A DNA stretch of 64,000 bases from contig NZ_BBWW01000001.1 in the NCBI RefSeq assembly GCF_001485215.1, positions 3,224,001 through 3,288,000 of the forward strand, in the 5' to 3' direction. Both the position numbers and the translations under genes were made by a program. This document shows positions 4,132-58,129 of the stretch, piece by piece. Source of the stretch: Leptolyngbya sp. NIES-2104. GTDB taxonomy: Bacteria > Cyanobacteriota > Cyanobacteriia > Leptolyngbyales > Leptolyngbyaceae. The notes beneath the pieces were generated by a model that made no database searches, was not told the DNA's origin, and was given only the letters and a program-made list of their open reading frames with translations. Position 1 is the stretch's first letter, and the number at the start of each line of letters is the position of its first letter.

Positions 4132-4153
4132 TGTGGTTCAAAAATAGGCAAGG

Positions 4154-11957: not shown

Positions 11958-12002
11958 CGTGTTTCTACAGTCGATCGCGCTGGGGTTCAAAAACAAGTAA
12001 GG

Positions 12003-12920
12003 TCAAGCGACTCGTAACCGTTCAATGTCTCGGATAGGTGGCGCACCAAACATGCGGGCATATTCGCGGCTGAACTGCGAGATGCTCTCATAGCCCACCT
12101 GATGAGCCACCTGGGTCGCACCCACATTCTCGGACAGCATGATCTGACGCGCTGCTGACAGTCTCAATTGCTTTTGATATTGCAGCGGACTCATCGAGGT
12201 CACTTGCTTAAAGTGGCGATGGAACGATGAAGCAGACATATTCGCCTGCTCAGCTAGATCCTCAACTCGGAGCGGCTGGGCAAACTCTGCTTTGAGTCGT
12301 TTGATGACTTCAGCAATCCGCTGCATATTGCTACCAGCCGTGGCAATCTGACGAATCGCCTCCCCTTGTTCACCAGTGAGCAGGCGGTAATAAATTTCGC
12401 GGATGACCATCGGGGCGAGAAACGGGATATCTTGCGGTGTCTCTAACAGCTTGGTCAGGCGGATAGCACAATCAATCAACGTTGAATCGGCATTACTGAT
12501 AAACCAGCCGCTAACAGAATCTTTGTGATCGATACTTGGATTCGTTTGAGCGATGATTTCACAGAGCTGGGCAGAGTCTAGCTTTAGCTTAAGACATAAA
12601 TAGGGTTTGTCGGGTGTCGCCTCGACAGCACATCCACTCATCGGCAAATCCACCGAAACAACCAAATACTGAGCAACGCCGTATCGATAAGCTTCTTCAT
12701 TCAGCAGCACTTCTTTTTTACCTTGCACCACAAGACCAAGTACCGGTTCGCTGACACCGCGCATTGCTGTAACAGAATCACATTCCCGCATGAATGCTAA
12801 AGAATCGATCGCAGTTGCATGGGAACCGTTGCCCTTGCTGTGCGTGTGCCGAGCAACTAATGTCGCCAGTTCTTCACATTTGTCGATCGCTTCCTCATGA
12901 CTCGTTGTCTCAATTCCCAT
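12003..12920 (-). CDS. AraC-family regulator with AraC_N sensor domain, copy 2
   Basis: A 305-residue paralogue of the regulator at 4154-5071, same length and same ending 'PPIRDIERLRVA'. The helix-turn-helix regions are almost the same; most differences lie in the sensor domain (for example 'SLETTQKESV' against 'NPSIDHKDSV'), so the two may respond to different ligands at similar DNA sites. Even the sequence just after the stop resembles copy 1 ('GGTTCAAAAA'). It is divergent from the SDR gene at 13226. Confidence 0.9.
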   Translation of the reverse strand: MGIETTSHEEAIDKCEELATLVARHTHSKGNGSHATAIDSLAFMRECDSVTAMRGVSEPVLGLVVQGKKEVLLNEEAYRYGVAQYLVVSVDLPMSGCAVEATPDKPYLCLKLKLDSAQLCEIIAQTNPSIDHKDSVSGWFISNADSTLIDCAIRLTKLLETPQDIPFLAPMVIREIYYRLLTGEQGEAIRQIATAGSNMQRIAEVIKRLKAEFAQPLRVEDLAEQANMSASSFHRHFKQVTSMSPLQYQKQLRLSAARQIMLSENVGATQVAHQVGYESISQFSREYARMFGAPPIRDIERLRVA

Positions 12921-16122: not shown

Positions 16123-16788
16123 ATGAGAATTCGGTTAAAACGCCGCCGCTTCGGTCAATTAATGATCGTAGGTACGATCATGACAACAGCGGGGAACTGG
16201 ATGAGGCGATCGATCGCTCAACCCAGTCCTAAACCCTCACCTATCCCCCCGATCGCTCAGCCCAATGGAGTGGCTGTGGCACTAAAGATTAATGGCAAAC
16301 CTCAGTCACTTACGCTTGAACCGCGTGTGACGTTACTCGATGCCCTGCGCGAACATATCGGGCTGACTGGCTCGAAAAAAGGCTGCGATCACGGGCAGTG
16401 CGGTGCCTGCACGGTGATTGTAGATGGGCGGCGCGTGTTGTCCTGCCTGACGCTGATGGCAACGTGCGAAGGCAGCGAGGTGACGACGATCGAGGGTTTG
16501 GCACAAGGCGACGATCTGCACCCGATGCAGGCGGCGTTCGTCAAGAACGATGGATTTCAGTGCGGCTACTGCACACCGGGTCAGATTTGCTCAGCGGTCG
16601 CCATGTTGAACGAAGCGCAGAACGGCGGAGCGAGCTATGTCACCGCTGATGTGCGGCAGCAACCACGCCCGGTACAGCTCTCCGACGACGAGATCAAAGA
16701 AAGAATGTCGGGCAACCTCTGTCGCTGTGGTGCGTATCCAAACATTGTTGCGGCAATCAGAGAAGTTCACACGGGTGAGGCGGCGTAA
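16123..16788 (+). CDS. Molybdenum hydroxylase A, 2Fe-2S subunit (PaoA-like)
   Basis: A 221-residue protein. An N-terminal 'LKRRRFGQLM' followed by a short hydrophobic stretch looks like a twin-arginine signal, so the enzyme may be exported. A plant-ferredoxin fold follows with 'GCDHGQCGACTV' and a fourth Cys in 'VLSCLT', then the second cluster domain with 'CGYCTPGQI' and 'CRCG'. This is the electron-transfer subunit of xanthine dehydrogenase / aldehyde oxidase type enzymes. Only three bases separate it from the FAD subunit gene. Operon B carries a paralogue at 57395. Confidence 0.92.
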   Translation: MRIRLKRRRFGQLMIVGTIMTTAGNWMRRSIAQPSPKPSPIPPIAQPNGVAVALKINGKPQSLTLEPRVTLLDALREHIGLTGSKKGCDHGQCGACTVIVDGRRVLSCLTLMATCEGSEVTTIEGLAQGDDLHPMQAAFVKNDGFQCGYCTPGQICSAVAMLNEAQNGGASYVTADVRQQPRPVQLSDDEIKERMSGNLCRCGAYPNIVAAIREVHTGEAA

Positions 16789-16791
16789 ATT

Positions 16792-17790
16792 ATGAGACCT
16801 TTTCAATACACAAAAGCGAAGGACGCGAACACAGCCGTGCAAACCGTTGCAGCAAATGCAAATTCCCAGTTTCTAGCGGGCGGCACCAACCTGATTGACC
16901 TGATGAAGGAAGATGTAGCCCGTCCGGTTGAACTGGTGGATATCACGCGCTTGAACCTGACGCAAATCGGCACCGTTGCGGGAAGTGGCAATCTCTCGAT
17001 CGGAGCGCTGGCGAAAAACTCCGATACGGCGAATCACCCCCTCGTGCGGCAAAACTACCCGCTGTTGACGCAGGCGATTTTAGCAGGCGCGTCGGGGCAG
17101 ATTCGCAATATGGCGACCAATGGCGGCAATCTCAATCAGCGAACGCGCTGCCCGTACTTTTACGATACGGCGATGCCCTGTAACAAACGCGAACCGGGCA
17201 GCGGCTGTGGTGCGATCGCAGGCATCAACCGCAATCATGCGATTTTCGGCTGGTCGGAACAGTGCGTTGCGGTTTATCCCAGTGATATGGCGATCGCGCT
17301 TGCTGCCCTCGATCCGATTGTGCAGGTGCAGCGCTCAGACGGCACAGTGCGATCGATTGCCTTTACCAACTATCACCGTCTGCCAGAGAACAACCCGGAA
17401 AAAGACAACAACTTAGACCGAGGCGAATTGGTTACAGCGATCGAACTGCCGAGAAACAATTTTGCTGCTAAAAGTCACTACTTGAAAGTGCGCGATCGCA
17501 GCAGTTACGCCTTTGCGCTCGTCTCGGTCGCCGTCGCACTGGAAACCAGCGGCAACACGGTCAATCAAGTGCGAATCGCAATGGGTGGTGTAGCACACAA
17601 ACCCTGGCGCGCCACGGCAGCCGAAACGTTTCTAGCGGGTAAAGCGGCAACCGAAGCGAATTTTCTAGCGGCGGCTGAAGCGGAAATGCGGAATGCTAAA
17701 CCGCTCGAACACAACGCCTTCAAAGTCGAACTCGGTAAGCGGATGATCGTCCGCGCTTTAATCCAAGCGATGGGTAGCGATAGAGCTTGA
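16792..17790 (+). CDS. Molybdenum hydroxylase A, FAD subunit (PaoB-like)
   Basis: A 332-residue protein of the CO-dehydrogenase/xanthine-dehydrogenase FAD-binding family. 'FLAGGTNLIDLMK' near residue 27 and 'NMATNGGNLNQRTRCPYFYD' (about 106-125) are the FAD contacts; the four Cys residues nearby (C120, C130, C139 and others) fit a 4Fe-4S site as in E. coli PaoB. Its first 247 residues differ from the operon B copy at only about six positions, but the last 82 differ at about a quarter, a patchwork discussed in the findings. Confidence 0.93.
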   Translation: MRPFQYTKAKDANTAVQTVAANANSQFLAGGTNLIDLMKEDVARPVELVDITRLNLTQIGTVAGSGNLSIGALAKNSDTANHPLVRQNYPLLTQAILAGASGQIRNMATNGGNLNQRTRCPYFYDTAMPCNKREPGSGCGAIAGINRNHAIFGWSEQCVAVYPSDMAIALAALDPIVQVQRSDGTVRSIAFTNYHRLPENNPEKDNNLDRGELVTAIELPRNNFAAKSHYLKVRDRSSYAFALVSVAVALETSGNTVNQVRIAMGGVAHKPWRATAAETFLAGKAATEANFLAAAEAEMRNAKPLEHNAFKVELGKRMIVRALIQAMGSDRA

Positions 17791-17823
17791 TGCGTAAAAT
17801 TTTGGATCAAGGAGACGAATAAG

Positions 17824-17960
17824 ATGGCATTAATCGGCAAACGCCGCTAAATTCAACCCGCCGCGAATAGTGCATTCTGAACGAGAAAACTGCTTGTCGC
17901 ACATCATCGGCGGCGTGATTTTTGGTATCGGCTCGGCGCTGCTGGAAAAATCATTCAAAG
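17824..17960 (+). pseudogene. Remnant of an earlier Mo-subunit gene
   Basis: After a good AAGGAG site, an ATG at 17824 opens 'MALIGKRR' and stops at once. Another frame then reads 'CLSHIIGGVIFGIGSALLE', which matches the 'RSQIIGGVIxGIGxALxE' segment near the C-terminus of molybdopterin-binding subunits such as those at 18701 and 54176. The start and a late internal segment of a large-subunit gene thus remain, with about 550 codons deleted. It lies exactly where the Mo subunit sits in operon B. Confidence 0.6.
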
Positions 17961-17970
17961 GAGAAGGAGA

Positions 17971-18642
17971 ATGAAAATGTCGAGACGTGGAATGTTGACT
18001 GCGGCTTGCGGCTGCTGTCTTGCCGCGCTGGGTGCAGCGGCATGTTCCACCAACGCGCAGGATTCGCAAGTCGTGACCCAAGCCAGCGGCTCTGATCGGG
18101 AGAGAAAATCAAGTGCACGCGGCGAACGTCGTGACGGGTCGGGATTGCCCGACTTGCATCACGTCGCCCTGATTGTGGCTGATCGAGACCGCTCACTCGC
18201 AAAGCTCCAAGACGGCTTCGGCTTCGGTCGTTCGCACGTCTTCGATGCCCAGTTTCCGAAGGCTCGCGTGTCGAGCGGCGTGACCGGATTCAATCTTCGC
18301 ATTGGGTTCACCTGGATGGGGAATACGTTGCTTGAACTGCTGCAACCTGTGGACGATCGCTCTCCCCACGCGACTTTTCTCAAGGAACGCGGAGAGGGAA
18401 TGCACCACCTGGGGTTTCTTGTGCGCTCGATCGAGCGTGAACTCGACGCGATGGCGGCGACGCGTGGCGGGCAACGTCCGCCCTTGTTGGTTGATGCGAT
18501 GACCGCTGATGGCGTGAGCTGGTGCTATGTCGAGGGCGAATATGCGAACGGCGCAGTCATCGAGCTGATCGAGCGCAGCCCCGAATCCGAGAAGTTCTTC
18601 AAGCAGATATACCAAGCGACCGGCGGTCGGATGCCGGACTGA
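17971..18642 (+). CDS. VOC-family protein with Tat lipoprotein-like signal
   Basis: A 223-residue protein with AAGGAG before the ATG. The N-terminus 'MKMSRRGMLTAACGCCLAAL' has a twin-arginine motif, and 'GAAACS' is lipobox-like, so export is expected. The rest is a vicinal-oxygen-chelate fold: 'LHHVALIVADRDRS', 'GMHHLGFLV' and 'AVIELIE' give the usual His, His and Glu metal ligands. VOC proteins act as glyoxalases, epimerases or dioxygenases; this one is nearest in pattern to glyoxalase/methylmalonyl-CoA-epimerase types. It lies inside the molybdenum hydroxylase operon, in place of a lost Mo subunit gene. Confidence 0.85.
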   Translation: MKMSRRGMLTAACGCCLAALGAAACSTNAQDSQVVTQASGSDRERKSSARGERRDGSGLPDLHHVALIVADRDRSLAKLQDGFGFGRSHVFDAQFPKARVSSGVTGFNLRIGFTWMGNTLLELLQPVDDRSPHATFLKERGEGMHHLGFLVRSIERELDAMAATRGGQRPPLLVDAMTADGVSWCYVEGEYANGAVIELIERSPESEKFFKQIYQATGGRMPD

Positions 18643-18700: not shown

Positions 18701-20977
18701 ATGGCAGTGACAGGTAAACCGATTGACCGCGTTGACGGGCGATTGAAGGTAACAGGCGCGGCGAAATACGCCGCCGAATTTAACCAGCCGAATATGGCTT
18801 ACGCTTTTCCGGTCTGTTCGACGATCGCTAAAGGAACGATCACGGCGATCGATACGAGCGCGGCTTTAAGCGCGGCGGGCGTTCTAACTGTTTTAACGCA
18901 TGAAAACGCCGTCAAATTAAAAGCCATTAATCCAGCGGAGCAAATGAAAGCGGGCGTTCAGCTCGTCGGCGAGGATTTGCCGCCGCTCCAGACTAATAAA
19001 ATTTATTATTTCAAGCAGTGCGTCGCTTGCGTTGTTGCCGAAACTTACGAGCAGGCGCGTTTCGCCGCTGCGCTGGTCAAAATCACTTACGCCCAGGAGA
19101 AGCCCGCGAGCGATTTGAAAAGCGGATTGGCGAACGGTTATGTCCCGGAAAAGAATATGGGACAGCCCGCGCAGATCAACTCCGGCAAAGCCGCCGCGCC
19201 CTTTGCCGCCGCGCCGGTTAAATTTGAGCGGACTTACACGACCCCGACCGAGACTCATCATCCGATGGAGCCACACGCCGCCGTGGCGGTGTGGGACAGC
19301 GCGGGTAAGCTAACGATTTACGATTCGTCCCAAGGCGTTCTAAATATAAAAGCAACGGCGGCTTATTTTCTCCAAATCAAGCCGGAAAACGTGCGCGTAC
19401 TTTCGCCGTTTGTCGGCGGTGCTTTCGGCGGTAAAGGATTGTGGATGCAGCCCGTGCTGGCGGCGATGGCGGCTCAAGCGGTTAAGCGTCCAGTCAAAGT
19501 TGTTCTCACGCGCCAGATGCTGGTGGCGCAAGTCGGGCGACGACCCGAAACGAGTCAGAAAATCGCCCTCGGCGCAGGTAAGGACGGAAAACTTTCTGTG
19601 GTCCGACACCACACCGACACCTACAACAATAATGTCTGTGACTATCTTGAGCCGTGCGGTTCTGGAACCCAGTCTTTATATAACGCTACAGTGCGGGAAA
19701 TTACTTACAAAGTCGCCAAATTAAATCTCGGCTCGCCGACGTATATGCGCGCTCCCGGAAAAACACCTGGCACTTTTGCGTTTGAATCGGCGATGGACGA
19801 GCTAGCGCATGAGTTGAAAATTGACCCGATCGAGTTTCGCATCATTAACCATGCGATAAACGACCCGCTGACCAAAACTCCGTTTTCGAGCGAGTATTTG
19901 CGCGAATGTTACCGGATAGGTGCAGAAAAATTCGGCTGGTCGAAGCGCAAATCGCAGCCGCGTCAAACGCGCAACGGAAAATATTGGGTCGGTTACGGAA
20001 TGGCAGCGGCGACTTATCCGGGAGTCCGCCTTGCCGCGAGCGCCCGCGTGCAGATGATGTCAAACGGCGACGTTAAAGTAATGAGCGCAACGCACGACCT
20101 CGGCACGGGAACTTATACGGTCATGGCGCAGGCGGCATCGGACGCGCTCGGAGTTCCACTTGAAAGAATCAAAGTCGAAATCGGTGACACGAACTTGCCG
20201 AACGCCCCGCTCTCTGTTGGTTCGATGACGGTGGCGACCGTCCTTCCGGCGGTGCTAGCGGCGTGCGAAATGCTCCGCAAAAACTTAATGGGGATGGCGA
20301 CGGCTGACGGGAAATCAGAGTTAAGCGGCAGACGTGCTGAAGAAGTCGCTTTCGCCGACGCGAAATTTTTCATTAAAGGCGACTCTGGAAAATCGGATTC
20401 ATACGCTGACATTATGCAGCGTAATGGCAAAACAATGATGGAAGCCTGCGCGACGACAAAACCTGTGTCAGGTCCGCCCTCTAACGCGCCGTGTCTGGTT
20501 GCACAGGCGGCACCCGAAGAAAACAAGGACGACAAAAAATACTCGTTTCATTCGTTCGGGGCGCAGTTCACCGAAGTTTGGGTGGACGAAGACCTCGGCA
20601 TCGCGCACGTCAAACGGTTTACGAGCGTTCACGATGTTGGAATCATTATGAACGAAAAGACGGCTCGTTCCCAGATTATTGGCGGTGTGATCATGGGCAT
20701 CGGCGCGGCTCTGATGGAAATCACCGAACACGATAAACGCTGGGCATATCCAGTGACGCGATCGTTCGCCGATTATCACGTTCCGGCAAATCTGGACGTG
20801 CCTCCGATCGACGTTTATTTTATCAACAAGCCCGACCCGCACATTTCGCCGATGGGGGCGCGCGGAGTCGGCGAGATTGGGATTGTCGGTGTCGGCGCGG
20901 CGATCGCGAATGCGATTTTTAACGCGACCGGCAAGCGTATCCGTGATCTGCCAATCACACTCGATAAATTGCTGTAG
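18701..20977 (+). CDS. Molybdenum hydroxylase A, molybdopterin-binding subunit (PaoC-like)
   Basis: A 758-residue catalytic subunit. 'VTGAAKYAAEF' opens the aldehyde-oxidase hammerhead domain; 'VGGAFGGKGLW' and 'MRAPGKTPGTFAFESAMDEL' are molybdopterin contacts, and 'GARGVGEIGIVG' holds the catalytic Glu near the C-terminus. The enzyme would hydroxylate an aldehyde or N-heterocycle with electrons passed to the Fe-S and FAD subunits. It is only moderately similar to the operon B subunit (717 residues), unlike the FAD subunits. GCGATCGC is almost absent until its 3' end and its codon choice looks GCG/CGC rich, which suggests separate origin. Confidence 0.92.
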   Translation: MAVTGKPIDRVDGRLKVTGAAKYAAEFNQPNMAYAFPVCSTIAKGTITAIDTSAALSAAGVLTVLTHENAVKLKAINPAEQMKAGVQLVGEDLPPLQTNKIYYFKQCVACVVAETYEQARFAAALVKITYAQEKPASDLKSGLANGYVPEKNMGQPAQINSGKAAAPFAAAPVKFERTYTTPTETHHPMEPHAAVAVWDSAGKLTIYDSSQGVLNIKATAAYFLQIKPENVRVLSPFVGGAFGGKGLWMQPVLAAMAAQAVKRPVKVVLTRQMLVAQVGRRPETSQKIALGAGKDGKLSVVRHHTDTYNNNVCDYLEPCGSGTQSLYNATVREITYKVAKLNLGSPTYMRAPGKTPGTFAFESAMDELAHELKIDPIEFRIINHAINDPLTKTPFSSEYLRECYRIGAEKFGWSKRKSQPRQTRNGKYWVGYGMAAATYPGVRLAASARVQMMSNGDVKVMSATHDLGTGTYTVMAQAASDALGVPLERIKVEIGDTNLPNAPLSVGSMTVATVLPAVLAACEMLRKNLMGMATADGKSELSGRRAEEVAFADAKFFIKGDSGKSDSYADIMQRNGKTMMEACATTKPVSGPPSNAPCLVAQAAPEENKDDKKYSFHSFGAQFTEVWVDEDLGIAHVKRFTSVHDVGIIMNEKTARSQIIGGVIMGIGAALMEITEHDKRWAYPVTRSFADYHVPANLDVPPIDVYFINKPDPHISPMGARGVGEIGIVGVGAAIANAIFNATGKRIRDLPITLDKLL

Positions 20978-20986
20978 GGACGATTG

Positions 20987-21598
20987 ATGAACAATTTACA
21001 AGCAATTCTAGAAGCATTTCAAGCCACTCACCAGCGCCGTGAACCCGTGTTTTTAGCTACTGTCGTCAATACTCAAGGCTCTACCTATCGCCGCTCCGGT
21101 GCGCGGATGCTGATGACGCAATCCGGCGAAACGATCGGCATGGTGAGTGGGGGTTGCCTAGAGCAAGATATTCTGGAACACACGCGGCAGATGTCGCGGA
21201 GTGAGGCGATCGTCGTTACCTACGACAGCACCGCTGAACAAGAAGATATTCTCTGGGGATTCGGACTAGGCTGCAACGGCATGGTGCAAGTTCTAATCGA
21301 ATCTTTGCTGCCTGATGCCTGCAATTCACTCACGGTTCTAGATGAGTGCTGGCGCGATCGCACACCTGCCGTATTAGCCAGCATCCTTCAATCGGAAGGC
21401 TCGATCGCGCAAACATCAATCCGTCTAGGAACCTGTCTCGCCTTGACACCAGACAAACTGATTGTTTTTGATCAGTCTCACTCTGATTTAGTCACCGCGA
21501 TCGTGGCAGAGATTCAAGCCGTTTTAGTTCAGCGAACGGGTGGATTCTTGAAACATCGCTCTGTCCCCATCCATTCCTCAAATGCGTTCAACCTCTAA
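20987..21598 (+). CDS. XdhC-family maturation factor lacking its Rossmann domain
   Basis: A 203-residue protein from the ATG at 20987 (a TTG one codon earlier is also possible). Residues 1-165 match the XdhC/CoxI domain ('TVVNTQGSTYRRSGARMLMT', 'VSGGCLEQDI', 'WGFGLGCNG'). Residues 170-203 match the extreme C-terminus of the full-length XdhC at 50558 ('AIVxEIQAVL', 'GGFLKHRSVPIH'). About 180 residues, the whole Rossmann domain with its 'FGAGHDV' site, are missing without a frame break. XdhC binds molybdenum cofactor and delivers it to the apo-enzyme. Whether this short form works is unknown. Confidence 0.85.
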   Translation: MNNLQAILEAFQATHQRREPVFLATVVNTQGSTYRRSGARMLMTQSGETIGMVSGGCLEQDILEHTRQMSRSEAIVVTYDSTAEQEDILWGFGLGCNGMVQVLIESLLPDACNSLTVLDECWRDRTPAVLASILQSEGSIAQTSIRLGTCLALTPDKLIVFDQSHSDLVTAIVAEIQAVLVQRTGGFLKHRSVPIHSSNAFNL

Positions 21599-22190
21599 TG
21601 CGATCGGACTGGTTTTATTAGCTGCGGGAGCCTCTTCTCGCATGGGAACTGCTAAACAACTGCTGCCTTATCAAGGACGCAGCTTACTGCGTTACATGGC
21701 AGAAGTGGCGCTGGCATCAAGGTGTAGCTCGGTTGTCGTTGTGCTAGGTGCTCATGTCGATCGTACTCGATTAGAAATTCGCGATCTCCCGGTACAGACC
21801 ATTGAAAATCCCCACTGGTCATCCGGAGTGGGCAGTTCAATTCAGGCGGGTGTACAGCAGATCACCGCACAGCCGCTAGACGCAATTATCGTGATGTTGT
21901 GTGATCAACCTTTAGTAACTTCCGCGAACCTCAATCAACTGATCGAATCCTATCAAGCCACTCAGCCCTCAGTGATTGCTTCTGCCTATGCTGATACGCT
22001 AGGTGTACCAGCTTTATTTAGTCATCAGTTGTTTCCAGACTTATTGAGGTTAAGTCCGAACGAGGGAGCAAAGCATCTGATTAAGCAATACCGCGATCGC
22101 GTTGACTCGATTTCCTTTCCAAAAGGCGCGATCGACTTAGACACCCCAGAAGACTATCAGCGGTTGCACTCTAACCTGCATTCACTCTAA
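21582..22190 (+). CDS. MocA/MobA-like molybdenum-cofactor nucleotidyltransferase
   Basis: A 202-residue NTP-transferase. 'VLLAAGASSRMGTAKQLLPY' is the glycine-rich nucleotide loop with the following Lys, and 'VMLCDQPLV' is the metal-binding strand, as in MocA, which attaches CMP to molybdopterin. It overlaps the shortened XdhC gene by 17 bases, so the two are translationally linked. The paralogue at 49901 follows the full-length XdhC in the same order. It likely prepares the cofactor for hydroxylase A. Confidence 0.88.
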   Translation: MRSTSNAIGLVLLAAGASSRMGTAKQLLPYQGRSLLRYMAEVALASRCSSVVVVLGAHVDRTRLEIRDLPVQTIENPHWSSGVGSSIQAGVQQITAQPLDAIIVMLCDQPLVTSANLNQLIESYQATQPSVIASAYADTLGVPALFSHQLFPDLLRLSPNEGAKHLIKQYRDRVDSISFPKGAIDLDTPEDYQRLHSNLHSL

Positions 22191-27445: not shown

Positions 27446-27958
27446 ATGAACCCACAAAACAAGTCACAAGCTTTTGAAGTCAATCATGCCGAAGGTCGGG
27501 CATATTGGGGGATGGGCATTCTCTGGATTATGCTGGCGACTGCCGAAGATACCAACGGAGCGTATTCCTGTATTGAAGAGTTGATTCCACAAGGTCCGGC
27601 AGCACCGGCTCACATTCATGAGGCGGCAAATGAAACCTTTTACATCCTGGAAGGCGAAGCCACTTTCTTTGTTGAAGACCAGCCGATTAAAGCAACTGCT
27701 GGATCGTTTGTGTCCATTCCACAAGGCACCAAACATGCTTTTCAAATCGACTCGGAAACGGTACGGCTAATCAATACCTATGTACCCGCAGGGTTTGAGC
27801 AAATGATTATGGCGACGACTGTGCCCGCCGAGGTGCGAACATTGCCACCTGCTTCGATCGCTTTTCCAAATCAAGAACAGTCTAACCGAGCGATGGAGCA
27901 AATCATTCAAAAGTATCCTGCGGCTAAAACGGACTTCCTGCAAGGTTATGAAAGCTAA
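27446..27958 (+). CDS. Cupin-domain protein, quercetin-dioxygenase-like
   Basis: A 170-residue protein started at ATG 27446; upstream codons in frame overlap the SOD remnant and look untranslated. The cupin motif 1 is 'PAHIHEAANETFYILEGE' (His, His and Glu ligands) and motif 2 is 'GSFVSIPQGTKHAF'. The layout is that of single-domain quercetin 2,3-dioxygenase-like proteins, which bind a metal and may oxidise flavonoid-type compounds, though many have other roles. Its stop overlaps the upstream part of the next frame, and the FAD monooxygenase follows after 13 bases, so both were probably one operon. Confidence 0.85.
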   Translation: MNPQNKSQAFEVNHAEGRAYWGMGILWIMLATAEDTNGAYSCIEELIPQGPAAPAHIHEAANETFYILEGEATFFVEDQPIKATAGSFVSIPQGTKHAFQIDSETVRLINTYVPAGFEQMIMATTVPAEVRTLPPASIAFPNQEQSNRAMEQIIQKYPAAKTDFLQGYES

Positions 27959-28649
27959 GGAATCTAACCTTATGAACGAGCAAAACGAACACGCAACAAG
28001 TGACTCGCGTCCGGTACTGATTGTCGGTGCGGGACCAACTGGAATGACGGCAGCGATGGAACTCTCGCGCTTTGGAGTTCCCGTTCGCATCATAGATAAG
28101 CTGTTGGAACCTTCAACTACATCTCGCGCCCTTGCCGTACAAGCGCGCACCTTGGAACTCTTCGAGCAGCGTGGGCTAATCCAGGAGATGCTCCAGATTG
28201 GGAATCCGGGTAAGGCTGCCACCATCTATGGAAACGGCAAGTGCCTGGGTAAAGTACTCCTTGGAAAGATCAAGAGTCGTTACAACTACATCTTGCTCAT
28301 CTCTCAGGGCGAAACCGAACGCATTCTGCGCGAGCAGATCGATCGACAGGGGGTGGCGATCGAGCGCGGCACAGAGATGATCGATTTTTCTCAATTAGAG
28401 TCGTTCTCTGAGTCTGGGCTGAACGACGGTGTAAAGGCTGTACTCCGCAACAGCAAAGGAGAGCTTGAGGAACTCGAAGCATCTTACCTAATTAGCGCCG
28501 AAGGCTCACACAGCAAGGCTCGCCGCAACCTGAATCTTCAATTTCAAGGCAAATCACACAAGCAGAGCTATGCCCTCGCTGACCTTCATCTCGATGGCGA
28601 TATTCCCGATGATGAACTCTCAATCTTTACCGCCGCACATGGCTTCTTA

Positions 28650-29564
28650 GAGGGTGTTTTAAAAGTTGAATCGGGTCAAATTTTATGCCAAACGCCTCAC
28701 CATGATGCGAATCATCGCCAGATAAATAAAAGTCTCCGAAGTTTCCGGCAGTAGCTCATAGTCTCGCACTAAGCGACGACAGTGCATGATCCAACCGTTT
28801 GTCCGCTCCACCACCCAGCGCTTTTTGAGCAAGACGAAACCTTTGGTTTGCTCAGGACGTAAGACGACCTGGACAAGCCAATAGCAGATACTGATGACCC
28901 ACTGCATGAACGGTGCGCCATCAAATCCGCCATCGACCCAGATCGTGTGCAATCGAGATACGGCTTTGCCTTGTTTTCGGACTCGTTGCAGCGCCGTTTT
29001 GCCGCCCTCGCGTTCTGGGGTGCTAGCAGCAGTCACAAACACGCGCAAAACCAGTCCCAGCGTATCGACGGTGATAAATCGCTTGCGTCCTTTAATGATC
29101 TTTCCGGCATCGAAGCCCACGGCTTCATGGACACCCGCAGCGCTTTTCACCGACTGACTATCCAACACGGCTTCCGATGGACTGGGCATCCGTCCCTGTT
29201 CAATCCGACTGCAACGATACAGACAATCATGAACGTTGATCCAGGTTCCATCTTTGCGCCAGTTGCGAAAGTAGGTATAGACGGTTTGCCATGCCGGAAA
29301 GTCTCCAGGCAACGATCTCCAACGCACCCCTTCAACCAGAATGTAGAAGATCGCATTCAGGACTTCCCACAAATCCACTTCTCGCGGTCGTCCGCCCGGT
29401 TTTGCTTCGGGCAGCAAATCTCGCAACAGTTCATATTGAGCATGGCTCAAATTACTCGGATATGATTTACTCATGTTGCTCTCTCGGTGCTGTGTGTTTT
29501 ATGTATCTACAGCGTATAACCGGAGAGCTTTTTTACCCCCTTGATTGTCTTTTCAAACACCCTC
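28650..29564 (-). mobile_element. IS5-family insertion sequence, apparently intact
   Basis: 915 bases with terminal repeats GAGGGTGTTTTAAAAG (left) and GAGGGTGTTTGAAAAG (right, complement), 15 of 16 identical, and a 3-base target duplication TTA at 28647-28649 and 29565-29567 (the TNA pattern of IS5 relatives). One uninterrupted transposase lies on the minus strand. The exact fit into the monooxygenase codons shows a recent insertion. The MITE at 49581 has the same ends. Confidence 0.93.
28683..29474 (-). CDS. IS5-family transposase
   Basis: A 263-residue DDE transposase. 'LSHAQYELLRDLLPEAKPGG' is the N-terminal region; the catalytic residues are in 'AVLDSQSVKS' (Asp), 'IWVDGGFDG' (Asp) and 'RWVVERTNGW' (Glu). 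The reading frame is complete, unlike the transposase at 26107, to which it is only distantly related. It catalyses cut-and-paste movement of the surrounding element and could move the related MITE. Confidence 0.93.
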   Translation of the reverse strand: MSKSYPSNLSHAQYELLRDLLPEAKPGGRPREVDLWEVLNAIFYILVEGVRWRSLPGDFPAWQTVYTYFRNWRKDGTWINVHDCLYRCSRIEQGRMPSPSEAVLDSQSVKSAAGVHEAVGFDAGKIIKGRKRFITVDTLGLVLRVFVTAASTPEREGGKTALQRVRKQGKAVSRLHTIWVDGGFDGAPFMQWVISICYWLVQVVLRPEQTKGFVLLKKRWVVERTNGWIMHCRRLVRDYELLPETSETFIYLAMIRIMVRRLA

Positions 29565-30570
29565 TTAGGGGTCTTCCCGATGGGGAATCGTCACTTCCGC
29601 TTCATTGCGACTAATCCAGAGGAGCATGAAAAGACAGATGACGAACTGACTTTGGAAGAGTTGCAAAAGCTCTACGACGCGGACTCGCACATCCCTGTCA
29701 AGCTGAGAGATATGACTTGGAGTTCTCGATTTCGGATCAACAGCCGGATGCTTCACACGCTGCGAGAGCGCCGCATCTTCTTTGGTGGCGATGCGGCACA
29801 CATTCATAGTCCGGCGGGTGGGCAAGGAATGAATACTGGCATTCAGGACATGATCGATCTGAGCTGGAAACTGGCGATGGTTTGGCACGGCAAAGCAACT
29901 CCAGAGCTGCTGAACACCTACGAGGAGGAGAGGCTTCCGATCATTCGCGGTATCGTGTCCAAAACAGAAACCGCCACCGATGTGCTGAACTCCGACAGCC
30001 CGATCGTGCATCAGTTGGTCACGCACATCGCGCCCGTTCTACTCAACACCCGTTTCGTACAGCAGTTGAGTACTGGACTGATCAGCGAGGTCGCGGCGAA
30101 TTACCGGGAAAGCTCGCTCTCTCAAACTGATCAGGCTCGCGGCACTCTACGAGCGGGCGATCGAGTGCACGACTTAGATGTATTGGTGTGGAGCCGCGAT
30201 GCTGCGAGCGACACACAGTTCCGCAAATCACGTCTTTATGAAATTCTCGATCCGTCGCGCTTTACGCTGCTGGTAGCAGATGGCGATAGTACAGCGGACA
30301 TTGCTCCAACCTGGGAGGAGCAGCTCAGTCCTTGGTCTGGGATTTTGAAAACGTACCGAATCGCGCCTGCCTTTACCCAACCGGAGGCAAAGGTTCAATT
30401 CGACAGTTCCTTCGGCAGCGGTCAGAGCCTTTTGCTGGTGAGACCCGACTCGTATCTTGGTTTTATGGGAGATTGGGATGCTTTACCAGCACTGACAGAA
30501 TGGCTCAGTCGATGGTTCTCACCGACTGCAAATTGATCTCATTCGCATCAACAACTTTAGGAGAACAACC

Positions 30571-49517: not shown

Positions 49518-49580
49518 GATATTCTCCTGGTTGAATCCTTTGTTTGATTCGATTACCAAAGCGATTTCTTTGTTGTCTAA

Positions 49581-49872: not shown

Positions 49873-49900
49873 TGATAGCGGTATGATTTGCTGATTCAAG

Positions 49901-50530
49901 TCAGTGTTGCTCTGCGATCGTGTGTAGAAGTTGTTCATAATCACTGGACGTATCAATATCAACCGTACCTAATGGAAACAGTATACGAGCGACAGCTTGA
50001 ACATGATTTTGAATCACAAACCTTGCCCCTCGATCGGCTTGCAGTGTCATCAGCACTGGAAACAAAGCATGGCTAAAGAGCGCAGGTACACCCAGCGTAT
50101 CGGCGTATTCTGAGGCAACAATCAGCGTGCCTGTACGATCGTATGCCTCAATTAGTTGATGAACTAGCGAGACAGAAACAAACGGTTGATCACACAGCAA
50201 GATAATGACTGCCTCGATAGTTGGCTCGATCGATCGCAATGTCTTCAGTCCTGTTTGAATCGAAGAACTCATGCCTTCAGCCCAGCGACTATTCCTAATG
50301 GTAGTAACTGGCAACTGCTGCACTTCTGCCTCCAGTTGTTCGGACTGTGCGCCCAGCACTACAACAATCGGTTGGCAACCTGAGGCAAGCGCTATTTCTG
50401 CGGTATGACGCAGTAAGCTCCGACCTCGATATTGCAGAAGTTGTTTCGGAGTGCCTAACCGAGTCGATGCACCTGCGGCTAAAATGACAATCCCGATCGT
50501 GGAGAAATCACTCATTTGTCTATCAAGCAT
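49901..50530 (-). CDS. MocA-like molybdenum-cofactor nucleotidyltransferase, copy 2
   Basis: A 209-residue paralogue of the protein at 21582. 'IVILAAGASTRLGTPKQLLQ' is the nucleotide-binding loop and 'VIILLCDQPFV' the metal strand; 'ALFSHALFPVLMTLQADRGA' matches the other copy. Start at 50530 or, equally likely, the ATG at 50515. It lies 27 bases after the full-length XdhC gene, so maturation factors for a molybdenum hydroxylase are made together. It probably serves operon B. Confidence 0.88.
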   Translation of the reverse strand: MLDRQMSDFSTIGIVILAAGASTRLGTPKQLLQYRGRSLLRHTAEIALASGCQPIVVVLGAQSEQLEAEVQQLPVTTIRNSRWAEGMSSSIQTGLKTLRSIEPTIEAVIILLCDQPFVSVSLVHQLIEAYDRTGTLIVASEYADTLGVPALFSHALFPVLMTLQADRGARFVIQNHVQAVARILFPLGTVDIDTSSDYEQLLHTIAEQH

Positions 50531-52535: not shown

Positions 52536-52584
52536 ACAAGGTCTCCTTTGTCTTAATGTTGTTTGAGGTCTAGAATCAAGCATT

Positions 52585-54105: not shown

Positions 54106-54175
54106 GTCTGGAGCTATAGCTTGTCGTGTCTTCAAGCAATTGCTCGTCGTGTCAACACCGTATCCGCCCTGTTAG

Positions 54176-56329
54176 TCATAGCAACTTGTCAGGCGTAATC
54201 GGTAAATTTCTAATGCGCTTGCCCGTCGCGTTAAAGATCGCGTTCGCCACTGCGCCTGCCACACCACAGATTGCGATTTCACCGAGTCCTTTAACGCCCA
54301 TTGGATTGACTATCTTATCTTCTTCTGTCACAAAAACAGTTTCGATCTCGCCGATGTCAAGATTGACTGGCACATGATAATCGGCAAACGAACGGGTGAT
54401 GAAATTGCCGTAGCGCGGTTCGATAACGGATTCTTCCGTCAGCGCCATTCCAATGCCCCAGATGACACCGCCGATGATCTGCGATCGCGCCGCTTTTGGA
54501 TTCAGGACGCGCCCTCCGCCCGTGACGGCAACGAACCGCGGAATTTTGACCATCCCAGTTGCTTCATTGACCCAGACTTCAGCGAAATTGGCGTTAAAAC
54601 TATGCGAAGAATACTTCTCCGCCTCAGGTGATGGTTTTGCATCTGCCCGCGTTTGATATTCGCTCAATTTGGCGGCTTCCATCAGTTGTACCAGAGTTGG
54701 CGGAGTCGCCCACTGCTGGTTTGATTTCGCCTGAAGTTCTTGACGCAGTTGTCCACACGCGGCGTAAACGGCGTTGGTGAAGCTGGCGGCACCGAACGAT
54801 CCGACTGAACCAGCGGCGGGCGGCAGACTCGAATCGCCGATTTTGACGGTGACTTTTTCTAACGGCAAATCGAGCAGTTCGCCCGCCGTTTGCGCGATGA
54901 TCGTGTAGGTTCCTGTGCCTAAATCTGATGCCGCAAGTTCAACGCTGGCACGCACATCCGCGGCTTTGCGGGTGAGTTTGACCATAGCGGACGAGTCCCG
55001 CGTTCGAGCCGGGTAGGTGGCGCTGCTGACCCCGTAGCCGATCAGATAGTTGCCTTGCCGAACGGTGCGCGGCTCCAGTCTGCGCCGATTCCAGCCAAAC
55101 ACTTCTGCGCCTCTGGTGAGACATTGCACAACCGAACGCGACGACCAGGGTTTGCCGTTTGATGGGTCTCGCGCTGGCTCGTTGCGGAGACGAAATTCGA
55201 TCGGGTCGAGGCGCAACTGATAGGCGAGTTCATCCATTGCCGATTCGAGCGCGAAGCTGCCCGTGGATTGACCCGGACCGCGGGTGAAAGTCGGCAGGAT
55301 AATGTTCATGGGCACAACGCGGTAGGTCACTAGCGAATTCGGCGAGTCATACATAATTTTTGCGCCCTCGCCGCAATCTTCGAGAAATTCGGCAGTTGTG
55401 GCGGTGTGCGTCGTTGTGTCGTGTCCGATCGCGGTGAGTTTACCGTCTTGGGTCGCAGCTAGACGCAGGCGCTGGTGATTTCTCTGCCGCAGTCCCACTG
55501 AGTTGAACATCTGCTGGCGCGAAAGAGCAAGTTTAACCGGACGCTTTACGGCTTGAGCCGCGATCGCGGCTATCACCAGATTGCTCCACTGAGAGCCTTT
55601 CGCGCCGAAACCGCCACCGACATGGGGCGTAACAATACGGACGTTTTCCGGCGGCAAACCCAGCGTCCCTGCCGCCGCTCTTTGCACGCCGTTCACAACC
55701 TGCGCTTCGTTGTAAAGCGTCAGTTTGTTGGGGGCTTCCCACACGGCAATCGTCGCGTGTGGAGCCATCGGGTGATGATGCTCGATCGGCGTTTCGTAAA
55801 CCGCTTCGACTTTAAATTTGGCGGATTGAAAAGCTGTATTGAGATCGCCGCGCCCGTCGTCCTGAAATTCTTTCCCTGTGGGAACTACCGCTTCATTGAT
55901 ATGTTTTTCAAACTCAATTTTCGCTGCCGACTTTTGGTAAGAAACTTTCACTAAACGCGCCGCAGCCCGCGCCTGCTCGAAGGTTTCAGCAACAACGACA
56001 CCGATGTGCTGCCCATAGAACTCAATTTTATTATCTTGCAGCAACGCCCCGCCACGGATGCTGCTATCCGGTCTCGCATCGGGCGCGTTTGCTTTCAAAT
56101 TCAGCTTAGGCGCGTTTTTGTGAGTGATGACCGCCAAAACTCCCGCTGATTGTTCTGCCGCGCTTTGGTCAATCTCCGAAATTGTCCCAGCGGCAATCTC
56201 GCTTTTGAAAATCACGGCATATGCCAAGTTTGGAATTTTGTGATCAGTCGCGTAATTTGCCGCTCCGGTCACTTTCGAGATTCCATCAACCCGGCTTGTC
56301 GCCTCACCGATCAACTTTCTGCGTTTCAT
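54176..56329 (-). CDS. Molybdenum hydroxylase B, molybdopterin-binding subunit
   Basis: A 717-residue catalytic subunit. 'VTGAANYATDH' opens the hammerhead domain; 'VGGGFGAKGSQWSNLV' and 'TRGPGQSTGSFALESAMDEL' are the molybdopterin contacts, and the catalytic Glu is in 'GVKGLGEIAICG'. Only moderately similar to the operon A subunit at 18701, though both end 'ATGKRIRxLPITxDKLL'. The operon order 2Fe-2S, FAD, Mo subunit is uninterrupted, unlike operon A. Substrate unknown: aldehyde, purine or another heterocycle. Confidence 0.92.
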   Translation of the reverse strand: MKRRKLIGEATSRVDGISKVTGAANYATDHKIPNLAYAVIFKSEIAAGTISEIDQSAAEQSAGVLAVITHKNAPKLNLKANAPDARPDSSIRGGALLQDNKIEFYGQHIGVVVAETFEQARAAARLVKVSYQKSAAKIEFEKHINEAVVPTGKEFQDDGRGDLNTAFQSAKFKVEAVYETPIEHHHPMAPHATIAVWEAPNKLTLYNEAQVVNGVQRAAAGTLGLPPENVRIVTPHVGGGFGAKGSQWSNLVIAAIAAQAVKRPVKLALSRQQMFNSVGLRQRNHQRLRLAATQDGKLTAIGHDTTTHTATTAEFLEDCGEGAKIMYDSPNSLVTYRVVPMNIILPTFTRGPGQSTGSFALESAMDELAYQLRLDPIEFRLRNEPARDPSNGKPWSSRSVVQCLTRGAEVFGWNRRRLEPRTVRQGNYLIGYGVSSATYPARTRDSSAMVKLTRKAADVRASVELAASDLGTGTYTIIAQTAGELLDLPLEKVTVKIGDSSLPPAAGSVGSFGAASFTNAVYAACGQLRQELQAKSNQQWATPPTLVQLMEAAKLSEYQTRADAKPSPEAEKYSSHSFNANFAEVWVNEATGMVKIPRFVAVTGGGRVLNPKAARSQIIGGVIWGIGMALTEESVIEPRYGNFITRSFADYHVPVNLDIGEIETVFVTEEDKIVNPMGVKGLGEIAICGVAGAVANAIFNATGKRIRNLPITPDKLL

Positions 56330-56401: not shown

Positions 56402-57391
56402 TTAACTCTCCATTGCCCTCTGCAATGCGCTGATGATGGCACGTTTGCCGAGTTCAACTTTGAATTGGTTATGTTCGAGCGGTTTCGCTTGGCGCATTTC
56501 TGCTTCAGCCGCCGCCGCAAAATTCACCTCGGTCGCCGCTTTACCCGTCAGGAATCGCTCGGCTTCCGTGGCGCGCCACGGTTTGTGCGAGACACCGCCC
56601 ATTGCCACTCGCACCTGTTTGATTTGATTGCCGTCCATCTCTAACGCGGCGGCGACCGAGACGAGCGCAAAGGCGTAACTGCTGCGATCACGCACTTTCA
56701 AGTAGTGACTTTTAGCAGCAAAATTGTTTCTCGGCAGTTCGATCGCTGTAACCAATTCGCCTCGGTCTAAGTTGTTGTCTTTTTCCGGGTTGTTCTCTGG
56801 CAGACGGTGGTAGTTGGTAAAGGCAATCGATCGCACTGTGCCGTCTGAGCGCTGCACCTGCACAATCGGATCGAGGGCAGCAAGCGCGATCGCCATATCG
56901 CTGGGATAAACCGCGACACACTGTTCCGACCAGCCGAAGATCGCATGATAGCGGTTGATGCCTTCTAATGCGCCGCAGCCCGTGCCGGGATTGCGTTTGT
57001 TACAGGGCATCGCCGTATCGTAAAAGTACGGGCAGCGCGTTCGCTGATTGAGATTGCCGCCGTTGGTTGCCATGTTGCGAATCTGTCCGCTAGCACCTGC
57101 TAAAATCGCCTGCGTCAATAGCGGGTAGTTTTGCCGCACGAGGGGGTGATTCGCCGTATCGGAGTTTTTCGCCAGCGCTCCGATCGAGAGATTGCCACTT
57201 CCCGCAACGGTGCCGATTTGCGTCAGGTTCAAGCGCGTGATATCCACCAGTTCAACCGGACGGGCTACGTCTTCCTTCATTAAATCGATCAGGTTGGTGC
57301 CGCCCGCTAGAAACTGGGAATTTGCATTTGCCGCAACGGTTTTCACGGCTGTGTTTGCATCCTTCGCTTTTGTGTACTGAAAAGGTCTCAT
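56402..57391 (-). CDS. Molybdenum hydroxylase B, FAD subunit
   Basis: A 329-residue FAD-binding subunit. The start, spacing to the 2Fe-2S gene (3 bases) and first 247 residues are almost those of the operon A copy at 16792, with 'FLAGGTNLIDLMK', 'GGNLNQRTRCPYFYD' and the same cysteines. After 'SSYAFALVSVA' identity drops to roughly three quarters. DNA identity in the first part includes silent sites over long runs, which points to gene conversion. The Mo gene follows 72 bases downstream. Confidence 0.93.
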   Translation of the reverse strand: MRPFQYTKAKDANTAVKTVAANANSQFLAGGTNLIDLMKEDVARPVELVDITRLNLTQIGTVAGSGNLSIGALAKNSDTANHPLVRQNYPLLTQAILAGASGQIRNMATNGGNLNQRTRCPYFYDTAMPCNKRNPGTGCGALEGINRYHAIFGWSEQCVAVYPSDMAIALAALDPIVQVQRSDGTVRSIAFTNYHRLPENNPEKDNNLDRGELVTAIELPRNNFAAKSHYLKVRDRSSYAFALVSVAAALEMDGNQIKQVRVAMGGVSHKPWRATEAERFLTGKAATEVNFAAAAEAEMRQAKPLEHNQFKVELGKRAIISALQRAMES

Positions 57392-57394: not shown

Positions 57395-58129
57395 TTATGC
57401 TGCCGCCTCGCTTGCTTCCGTTTTCATTTCTGGCGTGTCGAATATCGCCTCTTCATTCGCAAACTGCCCTGCCTGTGCCTTGCCCGTGTGAACTTCCCTG
57501 ATTGCTGCGACAATGTTTGGATACGCGCCGCAGCGACAGATATTGCCCGACATTCTTTCTCTGATCTCGTCATCAGAGAGTTGCACTGAGCGCGGTTCCT
57601 GCCGCACGTCTGCTGTAACATAGCTGGCTTCGCCGTTTCGCGCTTCATCGAGAACAGCGATCGCGGAACAAATCTGACCGGGCGTGCAGTAGCCGCACTG
57701 AAACCCGTCGTTCTTGATGAACGCCGCCTGCATCGGATGCAAATTATCGCCTTGCGCTAACCCCTCGATCGTGGTCACCTCGCTGCCTTCACAGGTCGCC
57801 GCCAAGGTCAGGCAGGACAACACGCGCCGCCCATCAACAATCACCGTACAGGCACCGCACTGCCCGTGATCACAGCCTTTTTTCGAGCCAGTTAGCCCAA
57901 TCTGTTCGCGCAGGGCATCGAGTAACGTCACGCGCGAATCAAGCGCGAGTGAACGAGATGAGTTATTGATCTTCAGTGCCACATTTACAGCATTAGATGG
58001 CGATGGAACGGCTGGGGGTTGCGGACTGATTTGAGCAATCGATCGCTTCATCCAGTTGCTGGCAGTTGCGACCACCGTGCTCACAATTATCAGTTGACCG
58101 AAGCGTCTTCTTCTTAGCTTAATTCTCAT
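57395..58129 (-). CDS. Molybdenum hydroxylase B, 2Fe-2S subunit
   Basis: A 244-residue paralogue of the subunit at 16123. 'IKLRRRRFGQLI' suggests a twin-arginine signal; 'GCDHGQCGACTV', 'CGYCTPGQI' and 'CRCG' bind two 2Fe-2S clusters. It has about 20 extra C-terminal residues ('FDTPEMKTEASEAAA'). Unlike the FAD genes, silent differences from the A copy are spread through its length. A Crp-type regulator gene precedes it by 57 bases on the same strand. Confidence 0.92.
   Translation of the reverse strand: MRIKLRRRRFGQLIIVSTVVATASNWMKRSIAQISPQPPAVPSPSNAVNVALKINNSSRSLALDSRVTLLDALREQIGLTGSKKGCDHGQCGACTVIVDGRRVLSCLTLAATCEGSEVTTIEGLAQGDNLHPMQAAFIKNDGFQCGYCTPGQICSAIAVLDEARNGEASYVTADVRQEPRSVQLSDDEIRERMSGNICRCGAYPNIVAAIREVHTGKAQAGQFANEEAIFDTPEMKTEASEAAA

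What the first reader, a model, noticed from the sequence alone, without database searches (positions are those of the whole stretch)
16792..17790. Patchwork near-identity of the two FAD-subunit genes suggests gene conversion between inverted operons
The FAD genes at 16792 (+) and 56402-57391 (-) differ at about 6 of the first 247 residues, with long DNA runs identical even at silent sites, but at about 21 of the last 82. The 2Fe-2S genes beside them are clearly diverged and the Mo genes much more so. Only the front of one gene looks recently homogenised. The copies are inverted and about 40 kb apart, so the same homology could also invert the DNA between them.
Basis: seen in the sequence. Interest (0 to 1): 0.66.

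Follow-up and report, generated by a model that had tools for sequence, protein, structure and literature searches.

The report
Swappable catalytic subunits in aldehyde-oxidase operons
Two copies of a molybdenum-enzyme operon in a cyanobacterium share patches of their flavin-subunit gene, most likely by gene conversion, and in this and related genomes the neighbouring catalytic-subunit gene has repeatedly been exchanged in place for a very different one while the genes beside it stayed.

Summary
The two FAD-subunit genes differ at 6 of residues 1-247 and 21 of 248-329. The near-identity is two discrete tracts, window 16915-17063 (149 nt, no mismatch) and 17284-17533 (250 nt, 2 mismatches); fourfold-site differences are 1/73 in them and 25/85 in the rest of the gene. 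Gene conversion is the best reading. Net inversion is not supported: locus B is collinear with FACHB-471.
The conversion is part of something larger. Operon B and FACHB-471 share one locus; Nostoc mirabile and Komarekiella share another. FAD, XdhC, MobA and the 3' part of FeS give that tree. The catalytic Mo gene between them gives the crossed tree (742 of 749 informative sites, delta-lnL 1217). Switches lie at the end of FAD or the FAD-Mo gap, and in the last ~60 nt of Mo. A third pair, Nostoc MG11/N. mirabile operon 2, repeats this. Operon A holds a likely ~130-nt relic of a lost Mo gene.
Best reading: a conserved FeS-FAD chassis whose catalytic subunit is replaced in situ by recombination at conserved ends. 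The kind (mosaic operons) is known; this recurrent, mapped form is a new variant.

The parts
16123..16788 (+). operon A 2Fe-2S subunit (PaoA-like) with RRRF twin-arginine-like N-terminus; lacks 75 nt (25 codons) near its 3' end that operon B has
16792..17790 (+). operon A FAD subunit (PaoB-like)
   Evidence: the operon B copy has E. coli PaoB 5g5g as best PDB match
16915..17063 (+). conversion tract 1 in operon A (149 nt identical to B 57120-57268)
17284..17533 (+). conversion tract 2 in operon A (250 nt, 2 mismatches to B 56650-56899); ends at residue 247
17791..17953 (+). likely relic of a deleted earlier Mo gene: FAD-Mo junction with a start codon at 17824, then a C-terminal fragment at 17897-17953 (IIGGVIFGIGSALLE)
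   Evidence: C-terminal fragment: 0 of 1000 Markov-simulated sequences reach its score
17971..18642 (+). VOC/glyoxalase-fold protein gene inserted between FAD and Mo of operon A
   Evidence: below-cut-off hit to the methylmalonyl-CoA epimerase model, 43.7 bits; layout
18701..20977 (+). operon A Mo catalytic subunit, type II (with FACHB-471 and Komarekiella)
20984..21598 (+). XdhC-like maturation gene of operon A, 204 aa against 392 aa in operon B
21582..22190 (+). MobA-like nucleotidyltransferase of operon A
57395..58129 (-). operon B 2Fe-2S subunit
56402..57391 (-). operon B FAD subunit
57120..57268 (-). conversion tract 1 in operon B
56650..56899 (-). conversion tract 2 in operon B
56435..56447 (-). 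start of the zone of topology switch: informative sites change at FAD nt 945-957 (five crossed-tree sites follow); in operon B the switch may lie anywhere from here to the Mo start
54176..56329 (-). operon B Mo catalytic subunit, type I (95% nt to Nostoc mirabile L003)
54188..54236 (-). zone of topology switch at the Mo 3' end (Mo nt 2094-2142, conserved tail encoding ATGKRIRxLPITxDKLL); rests on three locus-tree sites and the stop codon
50558..51736 (-). XdhC of operon B, collinear with FACHB-471
49901..50530 (-). MobA-like gene of operon B, collinear with FACHB-471

Best explanation
These are PaoABC-like heterotrimeric molybdenum hydroxylase operons in which the FeS-FAD pair is a conserved electron-transfer chassis and the catalytic Mo gene is exchangeable. 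Shown: (1) operons A and B share two short stretches of the FAD gene that are far younger than the rest; (2) at the locus of operon B, and at two other locus pairs in cyanobacteria, the Mo gene belongs to a different lineage from the genes on either side of it, so it was replaced in place in one member of each pair; (3) the switch points lie at the 3' end of FAD or the FAD-Mo gap, and inside the conserved 3' tail of Mo. Inferred: replacement runs by homologous recombination between an incoming operon and a resident one, with the conserved FAD gene as the long anchor and the conserved Mo tail as the short one; the A/B tracts are non-crossover products of recombination on the same FAD anchor. 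The relic in operon A suggests that it too changed its Mo gene, there by insertion of a new one and decay of the old. Swapped-in Mo subunits must assemble with a foreign FeS-FAD pair; low dN/dS between the exchanged Mo genes (0.13 and 0.25) suggests that they still work.
For: A/B conversion. Quartet B, FACHB-471, Nostoc mirabile, Komarekiella: FeS 3', FAD nt 1-740, XdhC and MobA support (B,F471)|(Nm,Ka) with delta-lnL 27, 70, 477, 162; FAD nt 741-end by 13; Mo without its last 130 columns supports (B,Nm)|(F471,Ka) by 1217. Informative sites for the locus/crossed/third tree: FAD 91/13/6, Mo 6/742/1, XdhC 338/6/2, MobA 142/2/1; switches at FAD nt 945-957 and Mo nt 2094-2142. dS: B-Nm Mo 0.165 against FAD 1.06; F471-Ka Mo 0.246 against FAD 1.01. 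Nucleotide identity around rpoB is 71-77% for window-Nm and 74-76% for F471-Ka, against Mo 95% and 90%. Third pair L019/L025: dS FeS 0.013, FAD 0.072, XdhC 0.092, MobA 0.063, Mo saturated at 58% nt, breaks at the FAD end/Mo start and in the last ~60 nt of Mo. Trees. Relic. Two Mo genes behind one FeS-FAD in 3 of 40 operons (5 of the other 37 too short to tell).
Against: FeS does not follow the locus tree cleanly: its 5' part is unresolved and leans to the crossed tree, Komarekiella and N. mirabile do not align upstream of about FeS nt 196, and the A/B quartet on FeS is unresolved. FAD nt 101-200 holds 6 crossed-tree sites, so there was further recombination. Between Mo and XdhC the loci are not uniform: Komarekiella has insertions and a deletion there relative to N. 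mirabile (aligned blocks 93-97% identical), and operon B has a permease and a methyltransferase where FACHB-471 has 27 nt. The last 130 columns of Mo still favour the crossed tree by 42; the return to the locus pattern rests on three sites and the stop codon, plus ~25 shared bases after the stop for Komarekiella/N. mirabile but only 5 for B/FACHB-471. Tract 2 on its own gives AU 0.068-0.069 for the alternatives. The scored-fragment permutation test is at or near its floor for several other pairs (Ka-A, Ka-B, Ka-F471, It-Nm, It-Ka), so either mosaicism is wider or uneven rates inflate that test. On longest run only A-B and Nm-Ka of 15 pairs are at the floor, with B-Ka, B-F471 and Ka-F471 nominally at 0.01-0.05. 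In operon B the FAD-Mo gap is unlike that of N. mirabile, so no donor FAD sequence is clearly seen beside the Mo gene. Direction of conversion and of the swaps is unresolved. No biochemical evidence.
Confidence: 0.77

Rival explanations
1. The identical FAD stretches are left over from a recent duplication of the operon, and the diverged stretches (FeS, middle and end of FAD, Mo) are later imports.
For: Gives the same patchwork; imports clearly occur in this family.
Against: Needs at least three separate imports around two short tracts; two conversion tracts are simpler. Outside the tracts A and B are about as far from each other as from FACHB-471 (82% against 81% and 82% nt).
Confidence: 0.12
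2. Strong protein or codon constraint, not exchange, keeps the FAD stretches alike.
For: FAD proteins of the six closest cyanobacterial operons are 82-94% identical.
Against: 1 of 73 fourfold sites differ between A and B inside the tracts, while A against FACHB-471 in the same stretches differ at 23 of 57.
Confidence: 0.02
3. The crossed Mo pattern comes from an ancestral tandem pair of Mo genes with different copies lost in different lineages.
For: Tandem Mo pairs exist in Iningainema, Pontibacter and Ilyomonas; Pontibacter's second Mo aligns with the single Mo of Rufibacter at 70% nt.
Against: Mo dS between B and N. mirabile is 0.165 against 1.06 for the adjacent FAD; vertical descent cannot make one gene so much younger than its neighbour.
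Confidence: 0.04
4. The Mo gene is replaced by tandem insertion of a new Mo gene followed by decay of the old one, not by a double crossover between FAD and Mo-tail anchors.
For: Relic and inserted VOC gene in operon A; tandem Mo genes in 3 of 40 operons; insertions between Mo and XdhC in Komarekiella and in operon B.
Against: In three locus pairs the switches lie close to the ORF ends; in L019/L025 identity of about 95% runs on from the Mo tail through XdhC and MobA, which leaves no room for a relic there. The other loci were not searched for relics.
Confidence: 0.25
5. Assembly or polishing artefact homogenised the two FAD copies.
For: Reads were not available; repeats of this length can be mis-polished.
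Against: Genome in 5 contigs, 99.96% complete; tracts are short, flanked by diverged sequence, and tract 2 keeps two differences.
Confidence: 0.04

Closest known systems
[quoted passage not shown] 2003, Genome Biol 4:R55; seen only as a reference entry, text not held)
   Same: One gene of an operon replaced in place by a homologue from another lineage (judged from its title and from recall)
   Different: Here the replaced gene is the catalytic subunit, the exchange is crossed between two locus pairs, breakpoints map to within tens of bases, and a third pair breaks at nearly the same places. Whether the 2003 paper has such a case was not checked.
E. coli PaoABC periplasmic aldehyde oxidoreductase (PDB 5g5g, 5g5h; PMC3958847 passages read, PMC4273604 abstract and start of introduction read)
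   Same: FeS subunit with twin-arginine leader, FAD and Mo subunits, XdhC-type chaperone gene; FAD subunit's best PDB match, with a conserved CPYFYDTxxPCNKRxPGxGC stretch
   Different: Below NCBIfam equivalog cut-offs; two operons in one genome with unlike Mo subunits
Concerted evolution of paralogues in prokaryotes (PMC6053082, abstract and outline read)
   Same: Paralogues in one genome more alike than expected
   Different: Here two short tracts only, in one of three subunit genes
Cassette exchange between conserved anchors (e.g. allelic exchange at surface loci; recalled, no call)
   Same: Conserved flanks direct replacement of a variable middle
   Different: The variable middle is an enzyme's catalytic subunit that must assemble with the conserved subunits

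Membership tests
PaoABC equivalog (NCBIfam) | FeS subunit reaches PaoA model cut-off (322 bits) | tested here: not met
   284.1 (A) and 295.5 (B) bits; best model for both
PaoABC equivalog (NCBIfam) | Mo subunit reaches PaoC model cut-off (1180 bits) | tested here: not met
   664.3 (A) and 683.5 (B) bits; best model for both
Xanthine oxidase family heterotrimer, PaoABC-like | FeS, FAD and Mo subunit genes in that order with an XdhC-type maturation gene | tested here: met
   the operon A XdhC is about half length and operon A has a VOC gene between FAD and Mo
Xanthine oxidase family heterotrimer, PaoABC-like | Periplasmic export through a twin-arginine signal on FeS | not testable with these tools
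   RRRF motif near the N-terminus of both FeS proteins is seen; no signal predictor was run and export is not shown
Xanthine oxidase family heterotrimer, PaoABC-like | Aldehyde oxidation activity | not testable with these tools
   inferred from family only
Gene conversion between paralogues | Tracts of silent-site identity with sharp limits inside otherwise diverged copies | tested here: met
Gene conversion between paralogues | Tract groups A with B against the syntenic counterpart of B (FACHB-471) | tested here: met
   both tracts together AU 0.003 for alternatives; tract 2 alone 0.068-0.069
In-situ gene displacement in an operon | Gene conflicts with both neighbours at a syntenic locus | tested here: met
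Inversion by recombination between inverted copies | Flanks rearranged relative to a relative's order | tested here: not met
   locus B collinear with FACHB-471 on both sides; 0 of 7 congeners hold a close FAD homologue

The most novel reading that the evidence does not exclude
The FeS-FAD pair is a common chassis that accepts Mo subunits of only ~46% identity, and conversion between operons keeps the FAD gene alike because it must serve both catalytic subunits and keeps open a standing recombination port; catalytic specificity of these enzymes evolves mainly by cassette exchange at fixed anchors rather than by divergence.
Probability: 0.22. Interest if true: 0.75.

Novelty: new variant of a known kind. 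Interest (0 to 1): 0.56.

Why it matters
In E. coli the three PaoABC subunits depend on each other for export (abstract of PMC4273604), so one would expect them to stay together in evolution. Here the catalytic subunit changes lineage while its partners and maturation genes stay, in three locus pairs and at nearly the same breakpoints. That makes subunit compatibility in molybdenum hydroxylases directly testable with natural hybrids. It also warns that the FAD or FeS gene cannot be used to predict the substrate class of such an operon.

Tried and rejected
Inversion: congeners cannot test it, since 0 of 7 hold a close FAD homologue and in the listed matches the 30-49.9 kb stretch aligns with them only in pieces of about 4 kb or less (list cut); FACHB-471 was used instead. 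Direction of the A/B conversion: fourfold differences to FACHB-471 inside the tracts are equal or nearly so for A and B (10/23 and 10/23; 13/34 and 14/34), so unresolved. Plasmid carriage: 0 of 622 matching plasmid records cover 80% of the FeS-FAD-Mo genes of operon B in one place. Rfam over the whole window at gathering scores: 0 matches. A direct repeat of the FAD-Mo junction on both sides of the VOC gene in operon A: score 30 against a maximum of 32 and a 99th percentile of 25 in 500 shuffles, so only suggestive. Literature: the titles and abstract starts listed showed no paper on exchange of Mo subunits (listed 10 of 41 papers, 8 of 11, 10 of 12, all that were found in the others); the library holds open-licence papers only, so this is no proof of absence. 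IQ-TREE on all operons failed (thread setting) and timed out; FastTree was used. Rows dropped: L009, L017, L044 from the trees (37 of 40 operons used; the 40 were chosen by hand from the loci fetched); 12 of 94 loci from the wide survey because a gene was missing or cut. In that survey 22 of 139 pairs with FAD >=75% identical have Mo at least 20 points lower; the pairs are not independent, and the 7 with L020 may reflect its tandem Mo genes. On checking, several statements were mended (uneven downstream flank in Komarekiella and operon B, number of sites behind the 3' switch); none changes the odds.

Full report
OBSERVATION. Operon A (+) is FeS 16123-16788, FAD 16792-17790, a VOC-type gene 17971-18642, Mo 18701-20977, a short XdhC-like gene and a MobA-like gene. 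Operon B (-) is FeS 58129-57395, FAD 57391-56402, Mo 56329-54176, then a permease, a methyltransferase, XdhC and a MobA-like gene. A search of the 6.39-Mb genome (five contigs) with the B FAD protein finds these two copies only. The identity is in two tracts: FAD nt 124-272 without a mismatch and nt 493-742 with two. Fourfold-site differences A/B are FeS 34/91, FAD nt 1-125 2/19, nt 126-269 0/30, nt 270-479 9/33, nt 480-740 1/43, nt 741-988 14/33, Mo 125/188. In a permutation test over 651 polymorphic sites of six cyanobacterial operons the longest A/B run is 50 sites against a mean maximum of 13.2 (p<=1e-4). Of 15 pairs only A-B and N. mirabile-Komarekiella reach that floor on longest run (B-Komarekiella 0.012, B-FACHB-471 0.015, Komarekiella-FACHB-471 0.0497); on scored fragments several other pairs reach the floor too.

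A/B EXCHANGE. With FACHB-471 and Komarekiella as the other two taxa, the two tracts together support A+B (delta-lnL 18, AU 0.003 for both alternatives). The rest of FAD and the whole FeS are unresolved; nt 1-125 leans to A+B (AU 0.012 and 0.107 for the alternatives); tract 2 alone gives 0.068-0.069. FACHB-471 carries the locus of operon B: upstream sequence (window 60513-62000), FeS-FAD and XdhC-MobA are collinear at 82-88% nt. This argues against a net inversion between A and B since that split. Direction of conversion is unresolved.

THE MO GENE IS A DIFFERENT STORY. A and B Mo proteins are 46% identical, but B Mo is 95% nt identical to that of Nostoc mirabile (L003), and Komarekiella (L053) Mo is 90% identical to that of FACHB-471 (L004). 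For FAD, Komarekiella and N. mirabile are 93% nt identical. Protein trees of 37 operons put the FAD of opA, opB, FACHB-471, Komarekiella, N. mirabile and Iningainema in one clade (local support 99). The Mo proteins fall apart: opB and N. mirabile together (100) and with Ferruginibacter (82); opA with FACHB-471 and Komarekiella (100), beside the Mo of six operons from the window's own family (94); the first Mo of Iningainema with Niastella (100), next to the opB group, and its second Mo elsewhere.

IN-SITU REPLACEMENT. N. mirabile and Komarekiella share FeS 3'-FAD (94%) and XdhC-MobA (93%) with unlike Mo between. They do not align upstream of about FeS nt 196, and between Mo and XdhC Komarekiella has a short insertion after the Mo gene and a deletion and a ~1.1-kb insertion in the stretch where N. 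mirabile has a molybdenum-cofactor-synthesis gene. For the quartet B, FACHB-471, N. mirabile, Komarekiella (GTR+G4, AU test) the locus tree wins in FeS 3' (delta-lnL 27), FAD nt 1-740 (70), FAD nt 741-end (13), XdhC (477) and MobA (162); the crossed tree wins in Mo by 1217, and by 42 in its last 130 columns. The FeS 5' part is unresolved. Informative sites for locus/crossed/third tree are FeS 26/11/7, FAD 91/13/6, Mo 6/742/1, XdhC 338/6/2, MobA 142/2/1. The first change falls at FAD nt 945-957, after which five sites favour the crossed tree, one the third tree and none the locus tree. The return falls within Mo nt 2094-2142 of 2154, where the conserved C-terminus is encoded: the last three informative sites and the stop codon follow the locus pattern, as do ~25 bases after the stop for Komarekiella/N. 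mirabile and five for B/FACHB-471. In operon B the upstream switch could lie anywhere from FAD nt 945 to the Mo start, because its FAD-Mo gap is unlike N. mirabile's. dS is 0.165 for B-N. mirabile Mo against 1.06 for the FAD beside it, and 0.246 against 1.01 for FACHB-471-Komarekiella. Nucleotide identity around rpoB between these lineages is 71-77%. So each of the two locus pairs had at least one lateral Mo replacement, with the same two types of Mo. dN/dS between the exchanged Mo genes is 0.13 and 0.25.

A THIRD PAIR. Nostoc sp. MG11 (L019) and the second operon of N. mirabile (L025) have dS 0.013 in FeS, 0.072 in FAD, 0.092 in XdhC and 0.063 in MobA, but Mo at 58% nt. Identity drops at the FAD end/Mo start and returns in the last ~60 nt of Mo. 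L019 Mo is 86% nt to Chlorogloea (dS 0.55, against 1.16 for FAD), so L019 is a possible recipient. In 82 complete operons of 94 examined, 22 of 139 pairs with FAD >=75% identical have Mo at least 20 points lower; these pairs are not independent, 7 of them involve L020 with its tandem Mo genes, and L076 against L079 and L081 (Rhodobacteraceae by recall) is a further candidate.

THE SCAR IN OPERON A. After the FAD stop, 17791-17842 aligns with the FAD-Mo junction of FACHB-471 and Komarekiella including the Mo start (no separate control was run for this alignment). At 17897-17953 follows a stretch reading IIGGVIFGIGSALLE, matching the C-terminal part of Mo proteins (74% over 19 aa to opB and N. 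mirabile, 76% over 17 aa to opA). Its score, 32.7 bits, is not reached in 1000 Markov-simulated sequences (maximum 29.9). The most likely reading is an earlier Mo gene that was internally deleted, with the VOC gene and the present Mo gene now behind it. The fragment is short, so its Mo type cannot be told.

MECHANISM. Most likely, incoming DNA carrying a related operon recombines with the resident FAD gene on one side and the conserved Mo tail on the other; the catalytic gene is exchanged and the chassis stays. Conversion tracts between A and B are what recombination on the same FAD anchor leaves without exchange of flanks. Shown are the exchange, its approximate limits and the tracts. Inferred are the anchors' role, the route and the working of the hybrids. 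The alternative route, insertion and decay, fits operon A and the tandem Mo genes of L010, L020 and L021 (3 of 40 operons; 5 of the rest too short to tell).

RELATION TO KNOWN SYSTEMS. The enzymes are PaoABC-like: the FAD subunit's best PDB match is E. coli PaoB, and the best NCBIfam models are PaoA for FeS and PaoC for Mo, but both fall below the equivalog cut-offs, so they are not filed as PaoABC. In E. coli the FeS subunit carries the export signal and export needs all three subunits (abstract of PMC4273604), which makes exchange of one subunit notable. That the PaoB cysteine stretch binds an extra 4Fe-4S cluster is recalled, not tested. In-situ displacement in operons is a known kind (Omelchenko et al. 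2003, seen only as a reference entry). What seems new is its recurrence, crossing pattern and mapped limits in a catalytic subunit; the searches named in Tried and rejected listed no such report.

Noticed in passing
window 49575-49792: A ~215-bp palindromic element (arms 49623-49682/49696-49755) with at least 35 other places listed in this genome and further copies in congeners; MITE-like (list cut).
   Followed up: partly
window 49788-49874, 54020-54106, 60255-60341: An 87-nt repeat outside the longer ORFs whose three copies found in the genome all lie around operon B, in one orientation, with similar copies around the FACHB-471 operon; holds a GATAAATC-type direct repeat and may be a regulatory site.
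   Followed up: partly
L053 11324-12779 against L003 11253-11914: The molybdenum-cofactor-synthesis (MoaA-like) gene behind Mo in N. mirabile is cut by a deletion and replaced in part by ~1.1 kb with an NAD-binding (NmrA-like) gene in Komarekiella.
   Followed up: partly
window 20984-21598: XdhC-like gene of operon A is 204 aa against 392 aa in operon B; it seems truncated.
   Followed up: no
window 4131-4430 and 11980-12279: Two AraC-type regulator genes share a 300-nt stretch at 83%.
   Followed up: no
window 27948-30536: An FAD monooxygenase is in two pieces (27948-28754 and 29541-30536) matching successive parts of one family; possibly a split or interrupted gene.
   Followed up: no
L010 9043-13483, L020 9127-13777, L021 9160-14062: Two tandem Mo genes behind a single FeS-FAD pair.
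   Followed up: partly
window 51837-53934: Amino-acid permease and methyltransferase genes lie between Mo and XdhC of operon B; a similar pair lies upstream of the Iningainema operon.
   Followed up: no
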